The notes beneath the pieces were generated by a model that was given only the letters and a program-made list of their open reading frames with translations, made no database searches and was not told the DNA's origin. Positions 12,207-55,478 of a stretch of DNA of 64,000 nucleotides are shown piece by piece (the stretch's first letter is position 1; the number at the start of each line of letters is the position of its first letter). Position numbers and translations under genes: made by a program. The DNA is from Tetramitus jugosus. Taxonomy: Eukaryota > Heterolobosea > Eutetramitea > Acrasida > Vahlkampfiidae. Where the stretch lies: contig OW569363.1 in the NCBI GenBank assembly GCA_937625935.1, forward strand, positions 310,001-374,000, read 5' to 3'.

Positions 12207-13628
12207 ATGCATTCTTCGCAAACTGTCATCGTTGACGATTATGTGTTCCCCCTCAGTGGCCTCCTATCCCGTAAGTTGTTGATTTGTCTGAGCTACTTGA
12301 AAGATAATTGACTTTCGACTCACCACTCTTTTACGCATGTGCTAACAACAAAACATCTATCCTGTATCACAACAACAACAGGTACTGAGAGTAGAGAGTG
12401 CCTCAGGTCATATCTGATTGCCCAGAAGAATGTTGAGCAATTGGAATTTTTGGAAGCAATAGAGCAACTGGAGGTGCGTTCGAGAGCATCCAGGACAACA
12501 ATTGGATCGATTCGTCCCCATCTCCTATCCATTGTTCGCACATTTTTGGACCATGATTCTGTCAAGGAGGTAAATTTGTCACACAAGGACAAAATTCAAC
12601 TGAAAGCTATGCTTGAAGTGTTGTTGAACTCTCCAGATGATGAACGAGTTACAAAGAGGTCAATCAGAGAAGCATTCAGGAACGTGAGAACGATTATTGA
12701 GACAGAGATGACCAGTGAAGTTATACCAAGATTCCTCCGGTCCAATGAGTGGAACTTTCTGGTTACTAGAATAGGGACATCGTTTATTCGAGAACTGGGC
12801 TGTCCAAAACACAACATGGACTTTTCAGACGAGGACTTTTATGATCCTGTCGTAACTGTGAAGGATATCAATTTTGCAAAGAATATCATTCAAGAGACCA
12901 ACGATTGGAAGCTGTCAGGATTCAATCGAAAACAAAATATACAGTGCTTCAAGTCCAAGAGTATGCCTAGGTTTCTGCGAAATGTTTCCTGGCCCCACGG
13001 TTGCCTCAAATATTCTGGTATCCTTTCAATTCCTTTCGAAGTATGCAACCATTTCATGATGCATGTGTGCTACAGGAAGGAGTTTGATCGAATGGTAAGG
13101 GACGTAACTCTTCTAGAACATTATTCTCATGAAGAATTAGTCGCCATGTATCCAGAGAAGAAACTCTTGGAAGGAACTACATGTTCTGTCATTGACTCTG
13201 ATGTTGACTTTGGGCCAATATTTCTTCGCAGACAATCCATCAATGTTCTTACTGCCATCTGGGATGTGAAAGGAAACCAAGCCCTCATGATAGCCAAGCC
13301 ATGCTATCATCCAAACCTCGGGTCAGATGGAAGATGTGTATATCAAAATTTTTCAATTTGTTCACTGGAGAAACTTGATGACCACAGAACCAAGTATACC
13401 CAGATTCATATCCTTAATTTAGGAAGTTCAGTAGCAAACAAGTCTCTGACCTTCCTTGCATGCCAGAGAGCAAAGAACTTGGAGTATTGGTTGACCAAGT
13501 GTCTTCAAACAAAGGTTTCACATCCAATACCCTCGAACTGCCTACTTGATCCTGTTATGAAATGTTATCATGACTACAAACTGTTCATGGAGCGAAAGGC
13601 TCATGCAACAACAGAAAATCAAAAATAA
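12207..13628 (+). CDS. RGS domain - START-like protein
   Basis: Two exons, 12207-12270 and 12382-13628, joined by a 111-bp intron with GTAAGT and CAG ends; the phase is consistent and an in-frame stop lies just upstream of the ATG. The product is 436 residues. Residues 15-150 form an RGS domain: SRECLRSYLIAQKNVEQLEF, then IVRTFLDHDSVKEVNLSHKD and IPRFLRSNEW. The C-terminal half resembles a START lipid-binding fold, with NDWKLSGF, SGILSIPFEVC and an EFDRMVRDVTLLE stretch. RGS domains accelerate GTP hydrolysis by G-alpha, and the START part may sense a lipid ligand. A receptor gene with its own RGS domain lies 1.7 kb downstream. Confidence 0.75.
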
Positions 13629-15371: not shown

Positions 15372-18300
15372 TTATTGACTTCCGTCAAAATCCTTGCTGG
15401 CCAGCTCCAAGCTCATCTCCGAGCCGGCCATGTATTCTTCATAAAATGAAGTTCCAGTGAAGCGAGTGTACGTGTCTGATAAATTGGCAATGCTTGCATC
15501 GTATAGGCCATTCAAAGCCTGGCATACATCGTCCTTGTTGTCAAGAGAGGCTTTCCTGACAGCACTCATCCTCTTTCTTATTCTAGCCGATATATTTACT
15601 TGTCTATCACTGCCATCGGCAATGTACTTTTCATACAAGTCATCTACTATCTTGCGAACCTCCTCTGACTCCATACTACAGATATTTCGTTCTCTAATCT
15701 TTGAAAGCTCAGACCACAAAAGCAGATTTTCAAGAGAATGTTCAGTTTGACAATAATCAAAGAACAATTCATAACCCCTCTTCGATGATATCATGCTCAA
15801 CACGAGATCTTCTCCTTTCTTCTCTAATCTTGTGTATTCATTGTTCATTTTGTGATATCTTGTGTAGTTGTATATTGCACCAACCACCACTAAGCCACCA
15901 AAAGCAAGAATTTCAAGCAACACTAGTGCAATCTCCAACACACTTCTCGCAATCGAAATGGATGAATAAGCAGGTAGATCTTGTACCACTGTTGCTATTC
16001 CTAAACTATGAACAATTATGATCAGGATCGCGCACACTGACACTATGATTGACTGAGAACGAAACAGCAGAGGATCCCACGCGAGAAAACTTGAAATAGT
16101 GAAGCGAACAGATGACTTTCCTTCATGTCTACTCGTTCTTCGAAATCCGAGCAGAATATCAACTGTGAACGCAGTTACTATACCAAAAGATATCACGATC
16201 ATCAAAATGGAGTAACAAACTACTTGACCAATCACAACTTTGTTCCTTTGTGTTTTCCAGAGAGAAATGTTGCTATTGTAGTGAGCAGCTACTCCTACAA
16301 ACACAGCGAATATTGCAGTAACTAGTCCTAGGCAAATCATGGAAGAACTTAAAAATACTCGCCTGGACGAGAAAAGCCTTAAGAATCGTGCCCGCTTCAC
16401 TCGCTTGCTCTCATTTGTTGCCATGATGGAATAAATATTTTGCAACAAGATATATCGAACCTGCTGCCACAAAAATATGTACAAAGCTGTCACTGTCAAC
16501 CCATTGCTGATGATCATGATGAAATAAGAAAATATATCTGACGCACTGAACTTGTTCGCAAGGGACAGAGCATTTCTGATCCATCCTTGCAGTATCGCAT
16601 CGACTAAGCAAGCACCGATTCCAAAATAATGAGAGATGAACCTAGACTTGATGGGTTGTTGATTTCGACCAACAACCAACCCAATAAGAACTAAGCACTC
16701 TAATACAACGAAAAGAGAGTTAAATACAATGTCTACAATCTTTGAGGCTTGACTACTTCTCGAGTTAGGATTGGAACCACTATCAAGAACGAATGCCGAA
16801 AAACTTGTCGTATGGTTGCACCCACATCTGATAATGCCGTCAGAAACTCTGATAAGGGAGCACCCGTCCCCTTTCCATCGGCTCTCTACAGTATTCCAAT
16901 ATCGACATACAATTGTGCCATTAAGTGCTATGTCTTCCTGAAATTTAAAATCAATTAGAATGGGCTCAAACAAGTCTCTTACGACAAGTAATGAATGGTT
17001 CTCTCTCCTGAACTTAATATCAAGCACTGGACCGACTTTAGTGTCGTTGGAAGCCGCGTAAGGAGTCTTATGAAATACTAACAATGTGTAGGAGAGGACT
17101 GAGACATTTAACTCCGAACCAAATTGATTTGACAGAGAGAAACCATTATCAATTGATGGAGCATATATTTTCTCTTTGGATAATCGCTCAGCCAGATCAA
17201 TCCTCGTGCTGAATTCAAAGTTTGTTGTTGATATATTAGTGGCAGGATCTGAGACCCCCTTCTTGATGAGTACAACATCTGACAAACCGCTAGCAACGCT
17301 TAGGACCAGATCACTGGATACTTGACTCCTCGCCTGATCGTCGATCACATTCGAAATAACATTTGCTATTTTTTGGTTATTCTCTGTATTGATAAACTCT
17401 TCAAACGAACCATTCAACTTGACTTGGTTAATAATGTTGAGCAAGCTTGTTAGAGCTAGGTTTTTGTGAGAGGCGCTGAGAATAGTTGAGTTTTTGGTTA
17501 TCAAATCAACCACCAACAACTGCTCTTCAGCAATTTCAACTGTCGGTGCCATTTCAGAAGCGCGCTCTAAAATTTTAGTAATAAGTGTCTGTTTTGTTTG
17601 AACATCTGAACTCGTGGAAACAGACACTTGACTCGCAACCATAACTATATCTGAGAATTGTGTTGAGTTCAACAATTGCTCTACCTGACCTGTTCCATTA
17701 TTAGGCAAAACAGTTACATTCTGTGTGAAAGAACCAGTGTACCCATTATCCAAATTAAGAGCTTCAACCATAAGTAGTAGTTGATAGTTATTAGTCGAAT
17801 CTCCAGGAGGTAGTATCAATGACATTGTTTGATTATTCACTCCTGTTTTCAGCACTTGATATCTTTGTTGCAGGTAGCTGTAATAGGAAAGTGTGAGATA
17901 ATAATTCGCCACAGCTGACTGATCGTTCCCTTGGACTGAGAATTGATCCTGCAAGCTAAGCCCTGAAAGAGGGACAATTGATATCTCTTTGGAGAGTTGG
18001 AAATGGCTTTCATCACTTGTTCGAACAGCAAAGGTTCGAGTAATATTAAATTGTCTTTCTGCTTTGACACTAACTGTGAGTATAATGTTGTAGGTCGTGT
18101 TAGGTAAGATACCAGTAAGAGTATTAGGTTCAATCACGAGAGTTGAGAGATCGGTATCACTTAATATGCGTGAATTCACATCTTCGGGAGCTAAATCATG
18201 ACCCTCTTTTGTAATCTTGTAGCTCCATGAATACGCTAGTTGCCTTGGGGTTACTGAAGTGAAATTTGCTCTGATAATGGTCGCCTTCATGCGATTCAGA

Positions 18301-20057
18301 GTTACAACAGTGCTTGAATTGACCGTGTTTGAAGAAACAAACACATCAAAACAGGTTTTACAGCTATCATCCAATTGTCCTCGAAGACACAATTCTGAAT
18401 CGTAACACTTTGGAAGGGAGCAGTTACTTGTAATGAATCCCTCATAGCACTCACATACACCAGGAGCTATACAAACTCCGTGGCCAGAACAAGTATCATC
18501 GGCAGTTGCTGCCTTCCCGAAACAAACAGGATATGAACAACGACTACCAGACCAATCTGTGTCACAGAAACATGAATCTGGATTGACACACAACCCATGA
18601 CCAGAACATACAGATTCGTTGCTGAACAATACGTTATCACAATAGTATTGAGAGCAATCTAATCCACTATAATTTGTATCGCAGAAGCAGGAGCCAGAAC
18701 CCAAACATGATCCACGAGAGTTACAAGTAAGAATGTTGTCATATCTAATTCTTTGACATTCCCAATGAGAAATAGCAAATAAGCTGAATGCTGATGAGGG
18801 ATAAACAGCAGAAAACTTGGTTTTGAATGCAACAGGCTCATAGATTCTTGTGAGAGAGCTGGATGTTTGAATCAATCCATTTCCAAGTTGTGAATTGCTG
18901 TTATATCCCCATCCATAAAGTGTCCCATTAGAACTGATTGCAAACCCTGAATAAGTGAAAGTTCCAAAATGCACAGATTGTATCACAATTGGTAATGAAA
19001 CCAGTAGAGGGCCAGCAACAGTGCGAGCAGGTGATCCATCACCAAGCTCCCCTTCGTAATTGGATCCCCAGAAAAAGGTTTCTCCTGTGTCCGCTATTGC
19101 CATCATGGTATTGGTCATGGCGGCAATTGTAGTTATCGTTTTGTTTGACATGACCCCCTGAACTCTCGTTAGAGAGGTCACGGTGGACAGTTCACCTATA
19201 CCTACTTGTCCCAGAGTAGAGTCTCCACAGCACCACACTTGTCCATTCGTATACAACACACAGAAATTATTTAGGCCAGACTTTACGTCCTTAATAACGT
19301 TGGATCCAATATCAACTTGTACGGGCACTGAACTGTTTCCACCAATGTATCCTAAACCAAGCTGTCCGTTTCCATTCTCCCCCCAAGAATATAACGCTGA
19401 GGAAGACCATGCCAGTGAATGTCGATCTCCACAAGCTAAATGATCCATACTTGTTAGATTGATCTTTGTTGGAAATGGTCTATCACCAAAGTCTCCAGTG
19501 CCTAACATCCCAGAGTAGCTGATTTGGAATGCTGCCCCCCAAGTATACACAGTACCGTCGGAGTCTAGTGCCATTGTATGGAAACCACAGCAAGCGATTG
19601 ACTTAATTGTCTTGTTGGTCAAATCTCCTGTATTTAATTTGAATGGTGTTGTTCGATCGAAAGATGTACCATCTCCTAGATTCTTGTAAGAATTTGAGCC
19701 CCACATGTAGAGTGAACCATTTACAAGAGCACCTGAATGAGATCGCCCTGAAGAAATCATTTGCACTCCACTGGAAAAGGCTTTGAAGTAAGGAATTTCT
19801 GTGATGTTTTTCAGAACATTGTCAGGACTGGGAACACCTCTCAACGAGGGACTGGCACCCACAGCATAGACATAATTGGAACCAAAGGAATCACTATTAG
19901 CTACAGAGAGTGGACAGTCAGAGGGAGAACATTAGATCAAACCAGAATTTGGTGAATACTGTATGAAGCAAAGAAGCTACTTACCGCTGACACTGCCGAG
20001 CAGTAACCAACTGAAAAGAAATAAACTGGTCAGCACGAACAGGAGAGAGTGTGACAT
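15372..20057 (-). CDS. Adhesion-type 7TM receptor: RCC1 - EGF - GPS - 7TM - RGS
   Basis: Two exons, 20057-19985 (signal peptide) and 19900-15372, with an 84-bp intron (GTAAGT/TAG); the phases match and give 1,533 residues. In order: signal peptide 1-24; six RCC1-like propeller repeats at about 70-400, with repeated YxWG and GxLGxG; three or four Cys-rich EGF-like modules at 406-525; a beta-rich REJ/GAIN-like region at 545-1015; a GPS motif at 1023-1062 with Cys1023, Cys1038, Cys1050, Cys1052, Trp1026 and Trp1033, and an HT-T cleavage position at 1054-1056; seven TM helices at about 1080-1368; and a cytoplasmic RGS domain at about 1394-1515. By family knowledge the GPS can self-cleave and the RGS acts on G-alpha. 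The ligand is unknown. Confidence 0.85.
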
Positions 20058-50373: not shown

Positions 50374-51774
50374 TCATCGATTGAGGCTGTTACCATTGGC
50401 ATTAAGGGAGTAGGGAGGACTCTGATACGAAAAATATTCTTCATTAATTCTTCTGGATTGGTCATCAATGATAAGACTGAAGGGATGTTGCTGAATACTA
50501 CCTCCACCACCTGAAGTTATCGAAGATCGTCCACTTAAGAAAGAGTCACTTCGCTTGCGCGAATCAATGACTCGAGGTGGAGAGCCCATATGCCGCGAGA
50601 AAATGATTAGGTTGTCATGCTCCGAATCAGACTCAGAGTAATCGGAAAACTCGTCAATCTGCTGTATTCTAGTCTTCAACGAAGGCGTCAAATAGATGAC
50701 GACAATGATGACAGGGAAACAATCACACACGATATCTACAATTGACACGAACACGTAGTAAGTGTCAATACATAGACTGTTATCCGTCGAAGTGAGAATA
50801 AGTAATGCCAAACTCCAAACGAACTTCAATGTAATGATAATGGACACAACTGTCATTGCCAGCTTCATTCGCTTTGTTTCTCGATAATTGAAATTCGATA
50901 TGATATCAAATCCAGCCCACATTTTGGACCTCGCGTAAAAGTGCCATAGAATCATGAAGCTAACGAATCCAATAATGATCATGCAATGCCATGAAAGGTA
51001 TATGATTGATAGTATCGAATATACATTTGCTTTCGAAATGGATGCTCGTTGATATACGGAACAAAGCACCATTGATAAAATGAGAAAGATCCATTCAATC
51101 GCATGGATCACTAGATTGACAATAGCGATACCAATCTTTGATTTGCGCAGCGTTCGTTTGATAATCACAATCCCGAGTCCATAGGTGTACAGGAGGTGCT
51201 GAGACCAATCAATACACAACATTGTAAATGCACTATAGTAACACAAGCTCGCATAATGATAAATCAAATATCCAATCATAAACACCAATGGATAAGTCAC
51301 ATAACCGTCATCCTTATTCAACACTGCATCATGCATTGTCATTTGCTCGTTATAACCACCAAATATGATCCTCAACAAGAAGAAAACTGCTCTTCCAAGC
51401 GCATACACAATCAACAAGGCATAAAATGAGCTCCTCGAAATACCAAATTTCCAATTTTTCCTCCCATGAGACAACATTCTCACTCGAACCAGCGAGATCA
51501 GTGCCCAAATCAACAATGACACAAACACCAACACCATGACACAACAAATGAACAATGGCAGTGCAAAAGCAGCATGTTCATGCCATTTACCAAACTGAAA
51601 CAGATCATGACAGAGAGGCATTTTGGCACGTGTTGCATTACCCTGAACAAAGTATGGGTTGTAGTGACCTAGTGCACTAGTTGTCGTGTGGTTGTGGTCA
51701 TACGAGGAGGGGAGGATTGCAGCTTTCAATAGTTGTTGAAGTTCTTGCCACCACCACAAGAATAGTTGTGTCAT
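50374..51774 (-). CDS. Seven-TM protein, TOM1/THH1-like
   Basis: A 466-residue protein with seven predicted hydrophobic helices between about 70 and 360 and a Ser/Asp-rich cytoplasmic tail with several acidic Ser sites (SDYSESDSEHD). An N-terminal segment of about 65 residues has N-glycosylation-like sites (NHTT, NATR) and no clear signal peptide. The arrangement, with RMLSHGRKNWKFGISRSSFYALL and a YHYASLCYYSAFTMLCIDWSQ stretch, resembles the TOM1/THH1 (DUF1084) family of plants and protists, which includes GPCR-like proteins. That assignment is by eye. The ATG at 51774 is the first in frame. Confidence 0.6.
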   Translation of the reverse strand: MTQLFLWWWQELQQLLKAAILPSSYDHNHTTTSALGHYNPYFVQGNATRAKMPLCHDLFQFGKWHEHAAFALPLFICCVMVLVFVSLLIWALISLVRVRMLSHGRKNWKFGISRSSFYALLIVYALGRAVFFLLRIIFGGYNEQMTMHDAVLNKDDGYVTYPLVFMIGYLIYHYASLCYYSAFTMLCIDWSQHLLYTYGLGIVIIKRTLRKSKIGIAIVNLVIHAIEWIFLILSMVLCSVYQRASISKANVYSILSIIYLSWHCMIIIGFVSFMILWHFYARSKMWAGFDIISNFNYRETKRMKLAMTVVSIIITLKFVWSLALLILTSTDNSLCIDTYYVFVSIVDIVCDCFPVIIVVIYLTPSLKTRIQQIDEFSDYSESDSEHDNLIIFSRHMGSPPRVIDSRKRSDSFLSGRSSITSGGGGSIQQHPFSLIIDDQSRRINEEYFSYQSPPYSLNANGNSLNR

Positions 51775-53894: not shown

Positions 53895-54209
53895 AAACCA
53901 CCACCGCGATGTCGAGAAAAGTCTTCATTTCCCTTTCGAACTGATGTGGGTATTATTTCTGTAGATGGCTGATCTGTGTTTTTTGGTCTTGATGACATCC
54001 CATCAACTGTGTTTGCGGATTTGTTCCTCTTATTTAGGGAAAACTCCTTGCGAAAACTTGCTGCCAACCTTTCTATTGGTGACCTTACAATTAACAATTA
54101 CAATTCGCGGACAAACAACTCCCCCTTTGCTTTAAGAAGCGAACAGTTGTTGCTGCCAGCTTTTGCCGCAACATCCAAAAACATCCAAACACACCTATTC
54201 CCAACAACA

Positions 54210-55478
54210 ATGAGAGTTAACACCATTTTGTCAGTAGCACTCGTTTTGCTATTCTGCGTTTTGTCAGTCTACGCAAAGAGAGTTAGCGTTGATGACGTTA
54301 TGACCAAGGCTGAATTCTACAAGCAACACTGGGGAAAGTACCAAAAGGACTTTAAGGAGGCTGCTGCCATCTTGAAGACTATCTCTAGCTCTGATGCTGA
54401 CAAGAACATCTTCAAGAAGATCAAGGTCGACAAGATTTTGGGAGGCTTGAACAAGGTTAGCCAAGCTGCTGGTCACATCCAAAGCATCAAGGGTTTGTTC
54501 ATGGCTGATTCCGAAGCTGACAAGAAGTTCTGGAAGAAGATCAAGATTGACAAGATTTTGGGTGGTTTGGGAAAGGTCAGCGAAGCTGCTGGTCACTTGC
54601 AAACTATCAAGGGTGTCTTCATGGAAGATGTCGCAGCTGACAAGATTAACATTGGCAAGATTTTGTCTGGTGTTGAAAAGGCTTCTCAAGTTGCTGGTCA
54701 CTTGCAAACCATCAAGGGATTGTTCTCCATGAGCGATGCTGAGAAGATTAACTTCAACAAGATCTTGAACGGTTTGGGCAAGGCTTCCCAAGCTGCTGGA
54801 CACATCAACAACATCAAGGGTTTGTTCATGTCAGATGCTGAAAAGATCAGATGGAACAAGGTCTTGGGTGGTTTGGGCAAGGCTGCTCAAGTTGCTGGCC
54901 AAATCAACACCATTAAGGGCGTTTTCATGTCTGATGCTGAGAAGATTAACTTTAACAAAATCTTGAACGGTTTGGGCAAGGCATCTCAAGCTGCTGGACA
55001 CATCAACAACATCAAGGGTTTGTTTATGTCCGATGCCGAAGCTGAAGCTGAGAAGAAATTCTGGAAGAAGATCAAGTGGGACAAGATCTCCAACGGTTTG
55101 GGCAAGGTCTCCGAAGCTGCTGGACACATCCAAACTATTAAGGGATTGTTCCTGGCTGATGCTGCTGCTGAAGCTGAGAAGAAGTTCTGGAAGAAGATCA
55201 AGGTCGACAAGATCTTGAGCGGCTTGGGAAAGGCTTCTGAAGCTGCTGGTCATATCTCCACCATCAAGGGTTTGTTCATGTCCGATGCTGAAAAGATCAG
55301 ATGGAACAAGGTCTTGGGCGGTTTGGGAAAGGCTGCTCAAGTTGCTGGCCAAATCAACACCATTAAGGGCGTTTTCATGTCTGATGCTGAAAAGATTAAC
55401 TTCAACAAGATCTTGAACGGTTTGGGAAAGGCTTCCCAAGCTGCTGGACACATTAACACTATCAAGGGATTGTTCTAA
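54210..55478 (+). CDS. Secreted protein with ten tandem amphipathic repeats
   Basis: A 422-residue protein I do not recognise. It begins with a signal peptide (1-22, hydrophobic core LSVALVLLFCVLSV, Ala at -1) followed by a basic pair. Residues 23-68 are a unique N-terminal part. From about 69 to the end, ten repeats of 33-42 residues occur, each with a core of the form KIL-x-GLGKAS-x-AAGH-x-x-x-IKGLF and a linker (SDAEK, or an AEAEKKFWKK variant). The repeats alternate Lys and hydrophobic positions and are probably amphipathic helices. Codon use is strongly biased to AAG, AAC, GCT and TTG, unlike its neighbours, suggesting high expression. No Cys is present in the repeats. A surface, antimicrobial or structural role is possible; none is shown. 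Confidence 0.75.
   Translation: MRVNTILSVALVLLFCVLSVYAKRVSVDDVMTKAEFYKQHWGKYQKDFKEAAAILKTISSSDADKNIFKKIKVDKILGGLNKVSQAAGHIQSIKGLFMADSEADKKFWKKIKIDKILGGLGKVSEAAGHLQTIKGVFMEDVAADKINIGKILSGVEKASQVAGHLQTIKGLFSMSDAEKINFNKILNGLGKASQAAGHINNIKGLFMSDAEKIRWNKVLGGLGKAAQVAGQINTIKGVFMSDAEKINFNKILNGLGKASQAAGHINNIKGLFMSDAEAEAEKKFWKKIKWDKISNGLGKVSEAAGHIQTIKGLFLADAAAEAEKKFWKKIKVDKILSGLGKASEAAGHISTIKGLFMSDAEKIRWNKVLGGLGKAAQVAGQINTIKGVFMSDAEKINFNKILNGLGKASQAAGHINTIKGLF
54414..55478 (+). repeat. Ten tandem coding repeats of about 100-126 bp
   Basis: Direct repeats inside the secreted protein gene. Two blocks of two repeats (near 54840-55050 and near 55290-55478) are almost identical at the DNA level, with only a few silent differences over about 200 bp. 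Other repeats differ mainly in the linker. This pattern suggests recent duplication or gene conversion within the gene. Confidence 0.85.

What the first reader, a model, noticed from the sequence alone, without database searches (positions are those of the whole stretch)
15372..20057. Chimeric receptor: RCC1 propeller, EGF, GPS, 7TM and RGS in one chain
Adhesion-type receptors with a GPS motif usually lack a fused RGS, and 7TM-RGS proteins (such as plant RGS1) lack a GPS. Here both sit in one 1,533-residue protein with an RCC1-like ectodomain. It could sense a surface ligand, self-cleave, and limit its own G-protein signal.
Basis: partly seen in the sequence, partly recalled or inferred. Interest (0 to 1): 0.85.

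Follow-up and report, generated by a model that had tools for sequence, protein, structure and literature searches.

The report
Amoeba adhesion-type receptor with RGS tail
This gene of a heterolobosean amoeba encodes a cell-surface receptor that looks like an animal adhesion receptor on the outside but carries a G-protein off-switch on the inside; it belongs to a large amoeba receptor family already reported in Naegleria, and its propeller-shaped outer domain is the unusual part.

Summary
Window 15372-20057 (minus strand) encodes one 1,533-residue protein in two exons. RCC1 propeller, EGF repeats, REJ, GPS and RGS all pass Pfam cut-offs. AlphaFold2 models a GAIN domain, seven membrane helices and an RGS fold.

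It is not a one-off chimera. The same genome has 35 loci with this 7TM: 33 have RGS downstream and 34 GPS upstream. C-x-C-x-H-T-T-S-F is present at 33 of the 34 GPS, and RGS contact residues are kept in 26-27 of 27 aligned members. Ectodomains differ: RCC1, fibrinogen-C, EGF or unassigned. Bosch et al. 2022 (PMC9283941) already reported 28 7TM-RGS proteins in Naegleria fowleri, some with GPS, EGF and lectin domains, and GAP activity of isolated RGS domains. The class is known; the RCC1/REJ variant and the family-wide fixed cassette appear new in what I could search.

Most likely mechanism (inferred): the ectodomain binds a surface, the GAIN domain self-cleaves and exposes a tethered peptide, and the 7TM thereby gates the fused RGS, setting how fast G-alpha switches off.

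The parts
19985..20057 (-). exon 1: signal peptide (residues 1-24 and first base of codon 25)
   Evidence: hydrophobic N-terminus; read by eye, no predictor run
19901..19984 (-). 84-bp intron, GTAAGT...TGTAG
   Evidence: chosen by consensus among the GT-AG pairs enumerated; no transcript seen
15372..19900 (-). exon 2: rest of the receptor, single open frame to the stop
18774..19856 (-). RCC1-like beta-propeller ectodomain (about residues 40-400)
   Evidence: PF25390 4.2e-56, PF00415 9.7e-38 with 6 stretches; UVR8 best PDB sequence match 2.7e-43
18399..18758 (-). three EGF-like repeats (residues 406-525)
   Evidence: PF07974 4.6e-11, 3 stretches; cysteine positions
17658..18275 (-). REJ domain, C-terminal half of the profile (residues 567-772)
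   Evidence: PF02010 5.6e-13, profile 226-428 of 452
16788..17657 (-). GAIN domain (about residues 773-1062): helical part then beta-sandwich
16797..16910 (-). GPS motif (residues 1022-1059) with C1023, W1033, C1038, C1050, C1052 and H1054-T1055/T1056
   Evidence: PF01825 1e-7, 6e-8; these residues in 27 of 27 aligned
16785..16808 (-). tethered-agonist-like segment T1056-SFSAFVL directly after the predicted cut
   Evidence: TSF in 27 of 27; position 6 F or M and position 7 V, I or L in 27 of 27
15846..16760 (-). seven-transmembrane domain (residues 1072-1376)
15432..15797 (-). cytosolic RGS domain (residues 1393-1514)
   Evidence: PF00615 2.6e-11; E1415, N1416, N1460, R1504 in 27 of 27 and D1500 in 26 of 27; RGS17 alignment

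Best explanation
It is a surface receptor of the heterolobosean GAIN/GPS-7TM-RGS family. Shown by sequence or model: signal peptide, RCC1 propeller plus EGF plus REJ ectodomain, GAIN domain with an intact GPS, seven-helix domain, RGS domain with the main G-alpha-contact residues. Inferred: the GAIN domain cuts itself at HT/T and leaves the ectodomain held non-covalently; when the propeller/EGF part grips a surface (prey, substratum, other cells) the ectodomain is displaced or strained and the TSFSAFVL peptide engages the 7TM; the 7TM then changes how the fused RGS reaches G-alpha. The output is control of GTP hydrolysis (a receptor-gated GAP, as proposed for plant AtRGS1) rather than, or more than, nucleotide exchange.
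For: Domains. GAIN, 7TM and RGS folds. Cassette fixed across the genome: 33 of 35 7TM loci have RGS downstream, 34 of 35 GPS upstream. HTTSF at 33 of 34 family GPS with varied synonymous codons, 28 AGY and 5 TCN serines; reversed-pattern control 0. RGS contact residues in 26-27 of 27 members. Inner loops are the more basic ones, which puts the RGS in the cytosol. The genome encodes G-alpha proteins (59 matches, many of them exon pieces or weak hits); 4 of the 6 loci fetched show a switch-1 motif with the RGS-sensitive glycine. In N. fowleri, isolated RGS domains of 7TM-RGS proteins accelerate GTP hydrolysis of G-alpha subunits, two of which self-activate (PMC9283941, abstract, passages and one section).
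Against: No transcript, cleavage, ligand, membrane-topology or GAP data for this protein. The 7TM matches no Pfam receptor family (0 of 20 members) and no PDB sequence, so agonist-peptide binding cannot be argued by homology. The model rests on 8 sequences (pLDDT 75, pTM 0.52), so domain orientation means nothing: the CD97 match superposes poorly (rmsd 19.4 over 656 columns), and two of the eight Foldseek hits at E <= 0.001 are axonemal microtubule chains that I did not explain. Two of six fetched G-alpha loci did not show the switch-1 motif by my pattern. N. fowleri also has slow-exchange G-alpha subunits, and its authors doubt one of the GAP pairings as nonspecific (PMC9283941), so control of exchange is not excluded.
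Confidence: 0.5

Rival explanations
1. Self-limiting GPCR: the 7TM is a true exchange factor activated by the tethered peptide, and the RGS on the same chain shortens its own signal.
Against: No sequence match to any catalogued receptor class; PF00002 hits three other loci of this genome and none of this family; related 7TM-RGS proteins are seen as GAPs for self-activating G-alpha.
Confidence: 0.25
2. The 7TM is a passive membrane anchor and the RGS a constitutive brake; the cleaved ectodomain serves only adhesion, and regulation is by endocytosis or shedding.
For: Constitutive GAP action of plant 7TM-RGS at the membrane (PMC3386157, passages); relative to the window, RGS identity (23-43%) is lower than GPS identity (41-64%) among members.
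Against: The 7TM keeps 28 invariant columns among 20 members and the post-GPS peptide is kept together with the cut site.
Confidence: 0.17
3. Gene-model artefact: two neighbouring genes read as one, or a pseudogene.
For: No transcript seen.
Against: One long open frame (7e-43 by chance); GPS, 7TM and RGS in the same order at 33 loci of this genome and in proteins of other sources, including Willaertia magna P0004.
Confidence: 0.02

Closest known systems
Naegleria fowleri 7TM RGS family (Bosch et al. 2022, PMC9283941)
   Same: 7TM with C-terminal RGS; a number with GPS; EGF repeats and lectin domains in the ectodomain; lineage expansion (28 proteins there, 35 loci here).
   Different: RCC1, REJ, fibrinogen, GAIN, propeller and polycystin give no hits in that paper's text; its figures and supplementary table were not seen, so Figure 1 might show more. 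Here RCC1 propeller plus REJ. No N. fowleri protein was among the hits (about 8,000 candidates scored in each), so I made no direct sequence comparison.
Animal adhesion GPCRs (class B2, e.g. CD97, BAI3)
   Same: GAIN fold with GPS, H-x/T dyad, short post-cut peptide with hydrophobic positions 3, 6, 7 (pattern recalled), then seven helices; CD97 is the best Foldseek hit.
   Different: 7TM does not match PF00002; RGS fused at the C-terminus; RCC1 and REJ ectodomain.
Plant AtRGS1-type 7TM-RGS
   Same: 7TM followed by cytosolic RGS.
   Different: AtRGS1 has no large ectodomain, GAIN or GPS (recalled); no 7TM sequence comparison was made.
Polycystin-1 / sea urchin REJ family
   Same: REJ directly before GAIN/GPS.
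   Different: Polycystin-1 has 11 membrane spans (listing of PMC9672506) and PLAT (recalled), no RGS (recalled).
Willaertia magna ABK040_006584 (P0004)
   Same: RCC1, GPS region, 7TM, RGS in the same order; HTTSF.
   Different: 25% identical over the searched module; its GPS scores 20.5 bits, below the cut-off of 22.5; no REJ or EGF at E <= 0.01.
GPR158-RGS7-Gbeta5
   Different: RGS is a separate subunit, class C receptor; paper PMC8611064 seen only as a search listing with the start of its abstract.

Membership tests
7TM-RGS proteins | seven membrane helices followed by C-terminal RGS | tested here: met
   Models; PF00615 2.6e-11 after the 7TM
7TM-RGS proteins | RGS with conserved G-alpha contact residues | tested here: met
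   E1415, N1416, N1460, R1504 in 27 of 27, D1500 in 26 of 27; equivalence to RGS4 contact residues is recalled; in the RGS17 alignment E, N, D and R match, while RGS17 has serine at the N1460 place
7TM-RGS proteins | GAP activity on a G-alpha | not testable with these tools
   Shown only for N. fowleri proteins of the same architecture (PMC9283941)
Adhesion GPCR (class B2) | GAIN domain enclosing a GPS | tested here: met
   PF01825 over cut-off; GAIN fold by Foldseek and VIA on a predicted model
Adhesion GPCR (class B2) | catalytic H-x/[ST] dyad and GPS cysteines | tested here: met
   27 of 27; 33 of 34 family GPS in the genome
Adhesion GPCR (class B2) | self-cleavage | not testable with these tools
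   needs expression
Adhesion GPCR (class B2) | 7TM of the PF00002 family | tested here: not met
   No PF00002 match at E <= 1 in 20 members; genome PF00002 hits lie at three other loci
Adhesion GPCR (class B2) | 7TM structurally closest to class B | tested here: inconclusive
   VIA ties classes A, B, C, F and T
Polycystin-1/REJ family | REJ before GAIN/GPS | tested here: met
   PF02010 5.6e-13, partial profile
Polycystin-1/REJ family | 11 membrane spans with PLAT | tested here: not met
   Seven membrane helices in the model; no PLAT in Pfam
UVR8-type UV-B receptor | GWRHT tryptophan motif | tested here: not met
   absent in window protein, L021, L027 and P0004; motif recalled

The most novel reading that the evidence does not exclude
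A receptor class that inverts the adhesion-GPCR logic: a self-cleaving GAIN domain and tethered agonist that control a built-in G-protein off-switch, so that touch or binding sets the lifetime of the active G protein instead of starting it. The RCC1/EGF, fibrinogen-like and other ectodomains would be interchangeable sensors on one fixed signalling cassette, and the 7TM would be an undescribed receptor family.
Probability: 0.35. Interest if true: 0.75.

Novelty: new variant of a known kind. Interest (0 to 1): 0.5.

Why it matters
Adhesion GPCR activation and 7TM-RGS control are mostly studied apart, in animals and plants. Here one lineage joins both in 33 of 35 loci of a large family, which makes testable whether a tethered peptide can drive GAP output instead of exchange. 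It also bears on how old GAIN/GPS receptors are: in amoebae far from animals the cut-site motif is kept almost without exception while the 7TM matches no catalogued family. The RCC1 propeller, best known inside the cell, is used here as an apparent extracellular module.

Tried and rejected
Searching the 7TM by sequence led nowhere: no Pfam receptor family in 20 members and no PDB sequence at E <= 10. Fold search puts it among GPCRs but cannot name a class; classes A, B, C, F and T tie within about one Z unit, and the Foldseek E-values of the 7TM alone stay above 0.001.

UV-B sensing by the RCC1 part was considered because UVR8 is the best PDB match, and rejected for lack of the GWRHT motif. 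N-terminal pieces of L022, L025, L028 and L029 gave no convincing Pfam family. Repeats in the gene region were chance-like. Two-gene and pseudogene readings were rejected on frame length and paralogue order.

Results against a neat story: RCC1 is found in 3 of the 16 family members of this genome that were scanned in full (window, L021, L027), in L021 only partly; Willaertia P0004 does not group with them (long branch), so one origin of the RCC1 form is not shown. One search scored only 112 of 387 RCC1 candidates and its list was cut, so RCC1 in the 19 members not scanned in full is unknown. L037 was dropped from the 27-row alignment because its longest frame did not hold the module; its frame is split. 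C8 lacks a detected RGS and its 7TM match is partial; C7 is in pieces; C23:487411 is a fragment without GPS or RGS. L029 shows neither EGF nor REJ. In the protein searches only about 8,000 candidates each were scored, so the few hits are no census.

Not checked: the 2014 survey of GPCR domain architectures by de Mendoza and colleagues (recalled; not in the listings), and subscription papers. The claim that the RCC1/REJ form is not in print rests on searches of an open-licence library only, several with cut listings.

Full report
What is there. The stretch 15372-20057 on the minus strand encodes one protein of 1,533 residues. Exon 1 (20057-19985) holds a signal peptide; an 84-bp intron with GTAAGT and TGTAG ends follows; exon 2 (19900-15372) is a single open frame. 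Other GT-AG pairs also keep the frame; this one was chosen by consensus. The chance of 1,496 open codons at this composition is 7e-43. No transcript data were available.

Domains. Pfam gives, all above curated cut-offs, an RCC1-like propeller (4e-56), three EGF-like repeats, a REJ domain (6e-13), GPS (1e-7) and RGS (3e-11). No Pfam receptor model matches the membrane part, in this protein or in any of 20 members scanned at E <= 1, and a profile of 20 members finds no PDB sequence.

The family. The whole assembly of the window (26.3 Mb, 56 contigs) could be searched. The 7TM has 36 matches at 35 loci. By coordinates, 33 of 35 have an RGS 37-559 bp downstream, 34 have a GPS directly upstream, 27 a REJ and 15 a fibrinogen-C domain; the two without RGS are a partial match (C8) and a fragment (C23:487411). 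These 33 are part of 130 RGS matches; 34 of the 41 GPS matches belong to the family. So the GPS-7TM-RGS order is a fixed cassette, not a chance fusion.

Conserved working residues. In 27 aligned members (window, 19 paralogues, 7 database proteins; L037 left out) the GPS cysteines, tryptophan and H-T-T-S-F are identical in 27 of 27; in the RGS E1415, N1416, N1460 and R1504 are identical in 27 and D1500 in 26. A genome-wide pattern for C-x-C-x-H-T-T-[S-like]-F has 34 matches: 33 lie at family GPS sites and one elsewhere (C45, which reads C in place of S); the reversed control has none. Codons differ freely, and the serine is AGY in 28 and TCN in 5, so the protein, not the DNA, is held constant. 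After the cut the peptide reads TSF, then S, A, T or L, then A, V, S or T, then F or M, then V, I or L in 27 of 27 rows; the eighth residue is L or I except T in P0007 and E in P0004. Hydrophobic positions 3, 6 and 7 are the pattern of animal tethered agonists (recalled).

Different ectodomains. Of 16 family members scanned in full by Pfam (window plus 15), RCC1 is found in three (window, L021, L027; in L021 partial), fibrinogen-C in six (L030, L031, L033, L036, L039, L040); L022-L026 and L028 show EGF-like hits (L026 only below cut-off) with unassigned N-termini, and L029 shows only GPS and RGS (N-terminal pieces of four of these). Database relatives show NHL repeats (P0002) or RCC1 (Willaertia magna P0004). 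In the module tree the 11 rows labelled fibrinogen form one fork (96/97) and window plus L021 pair at 100/99; L027 and P0004 stand apart, so a single RCC1 origin is not shown.

Organism. For a conserved window gene (pyruvate dehydrogenase E1 alpha) the matches named for heteroloboseans are Acrasis kona 69%, Naegleria lovaniensis 67% and Willaertia magna 63% identical, and a metagenome protein is 96% identical. The first organism-named row by E-value is a Papilio machaon protein, but at 52% identity over 75% of the query; I read it as not the nearest kin. The species is a heterolobosean not named here.

How it works. Shown: architecture, fold predictions, conservation. Inferred: self-cleavage, tethered agonism, gating of the RGS. 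The genome has G-alpha proteins (59 matches including exon pieces and weak hits), and 4 of 6 fetched G-alpha loci show a switch-1 motif with the glycine that RGS proteins need. In N. fowleri isolated RGS domains of 7TM-RGS proteins are selective GAPs, and Nf G-alpha5 and 7 self-activate (PMC9283941; abstract, passages and section 4 read). A receptor-gated brake is therefore the best-supported output; a self-limiting exchange factor remains a real rival.

What is known. Bosch et al. report 28 N. [quoted passage not shown] That covers the core of the finding. Their text has no hit for RCC1, REJ, GAIN, fibrinogen or polycystin; the figures were not seen. The N. gruberi genome is credited with 229 RGS genes (PMC5784254, passage). 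The Naegleria pangenome paper counts 18 RCC1 genes under UVR8 (PMC9928731, passage). A choanoflagellate GPCR survey has no hit for RCC1 or Naegleria (PMC12716839, passages).

Verdict. Observation confirmed; interpretation partly supported; a new variant of a known kind, of moderate interest, with a sharper question attached: can a GAIN tethered agonist gate a GAP?

Noticed in passing
window 12312-13628 (+): A second RGS-domain gene (PF00615 1.3e-8) lies 1.7 kb from the receptor; its C-terminal part matches no Pfam family at E <= 0.001.
   Followed up: partly
window 50374-51774 (-): 466-codon frame that looks rich in membrane helices, with no Pfam match at E <= 0.001; possibly another 7TM protein.
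   Followed up: no
window 53973-55478 (+): Frame with about ten copies of a 35-45 residue repeat (of the type KILNGLGKASQAAGHINxIKGLF); Pfam hits are scattered weak matches to unrelated families.
   Followed up: no
G000 C51:209192, C28:48728, C51:261797, C45:98826, C52:276575, C46:83573, C17:491066: Seven GPS loci outside the 7TM-RGS family, in frames of 1,239-4,720 codons, with REJ in the same frame and some with RCC1, EGF or PKD domains: polycystin-1-like ectodomains (inferred; no channel or PLAT part was looked for) that share modules with the receptors.
   Followed up: partly
G000 C22, C24, C40, C43, C51: Giant frames of 5,500-9,200 codons packed with RCC1-like propellers.
   Followed up: no
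G000 C10:79850-86911 and C30:375132-382193: Frames of 5,449 and 4,461 codons with seven fibrinogen-C domains each.
   Followed up: no
L037 (G000 C47:192721-200720): Family member whose frame is split into overlapping 1,600- and 903-codon pieces; described only.
   Followed up: no
G000 C1:569521, C24:333000, C8:445518: Three PF00002-hitting loci; the one scanned (C1) is a slime-mould cAMP-receptor-like protein (PF05462 3e-14).
   Followed up: partly
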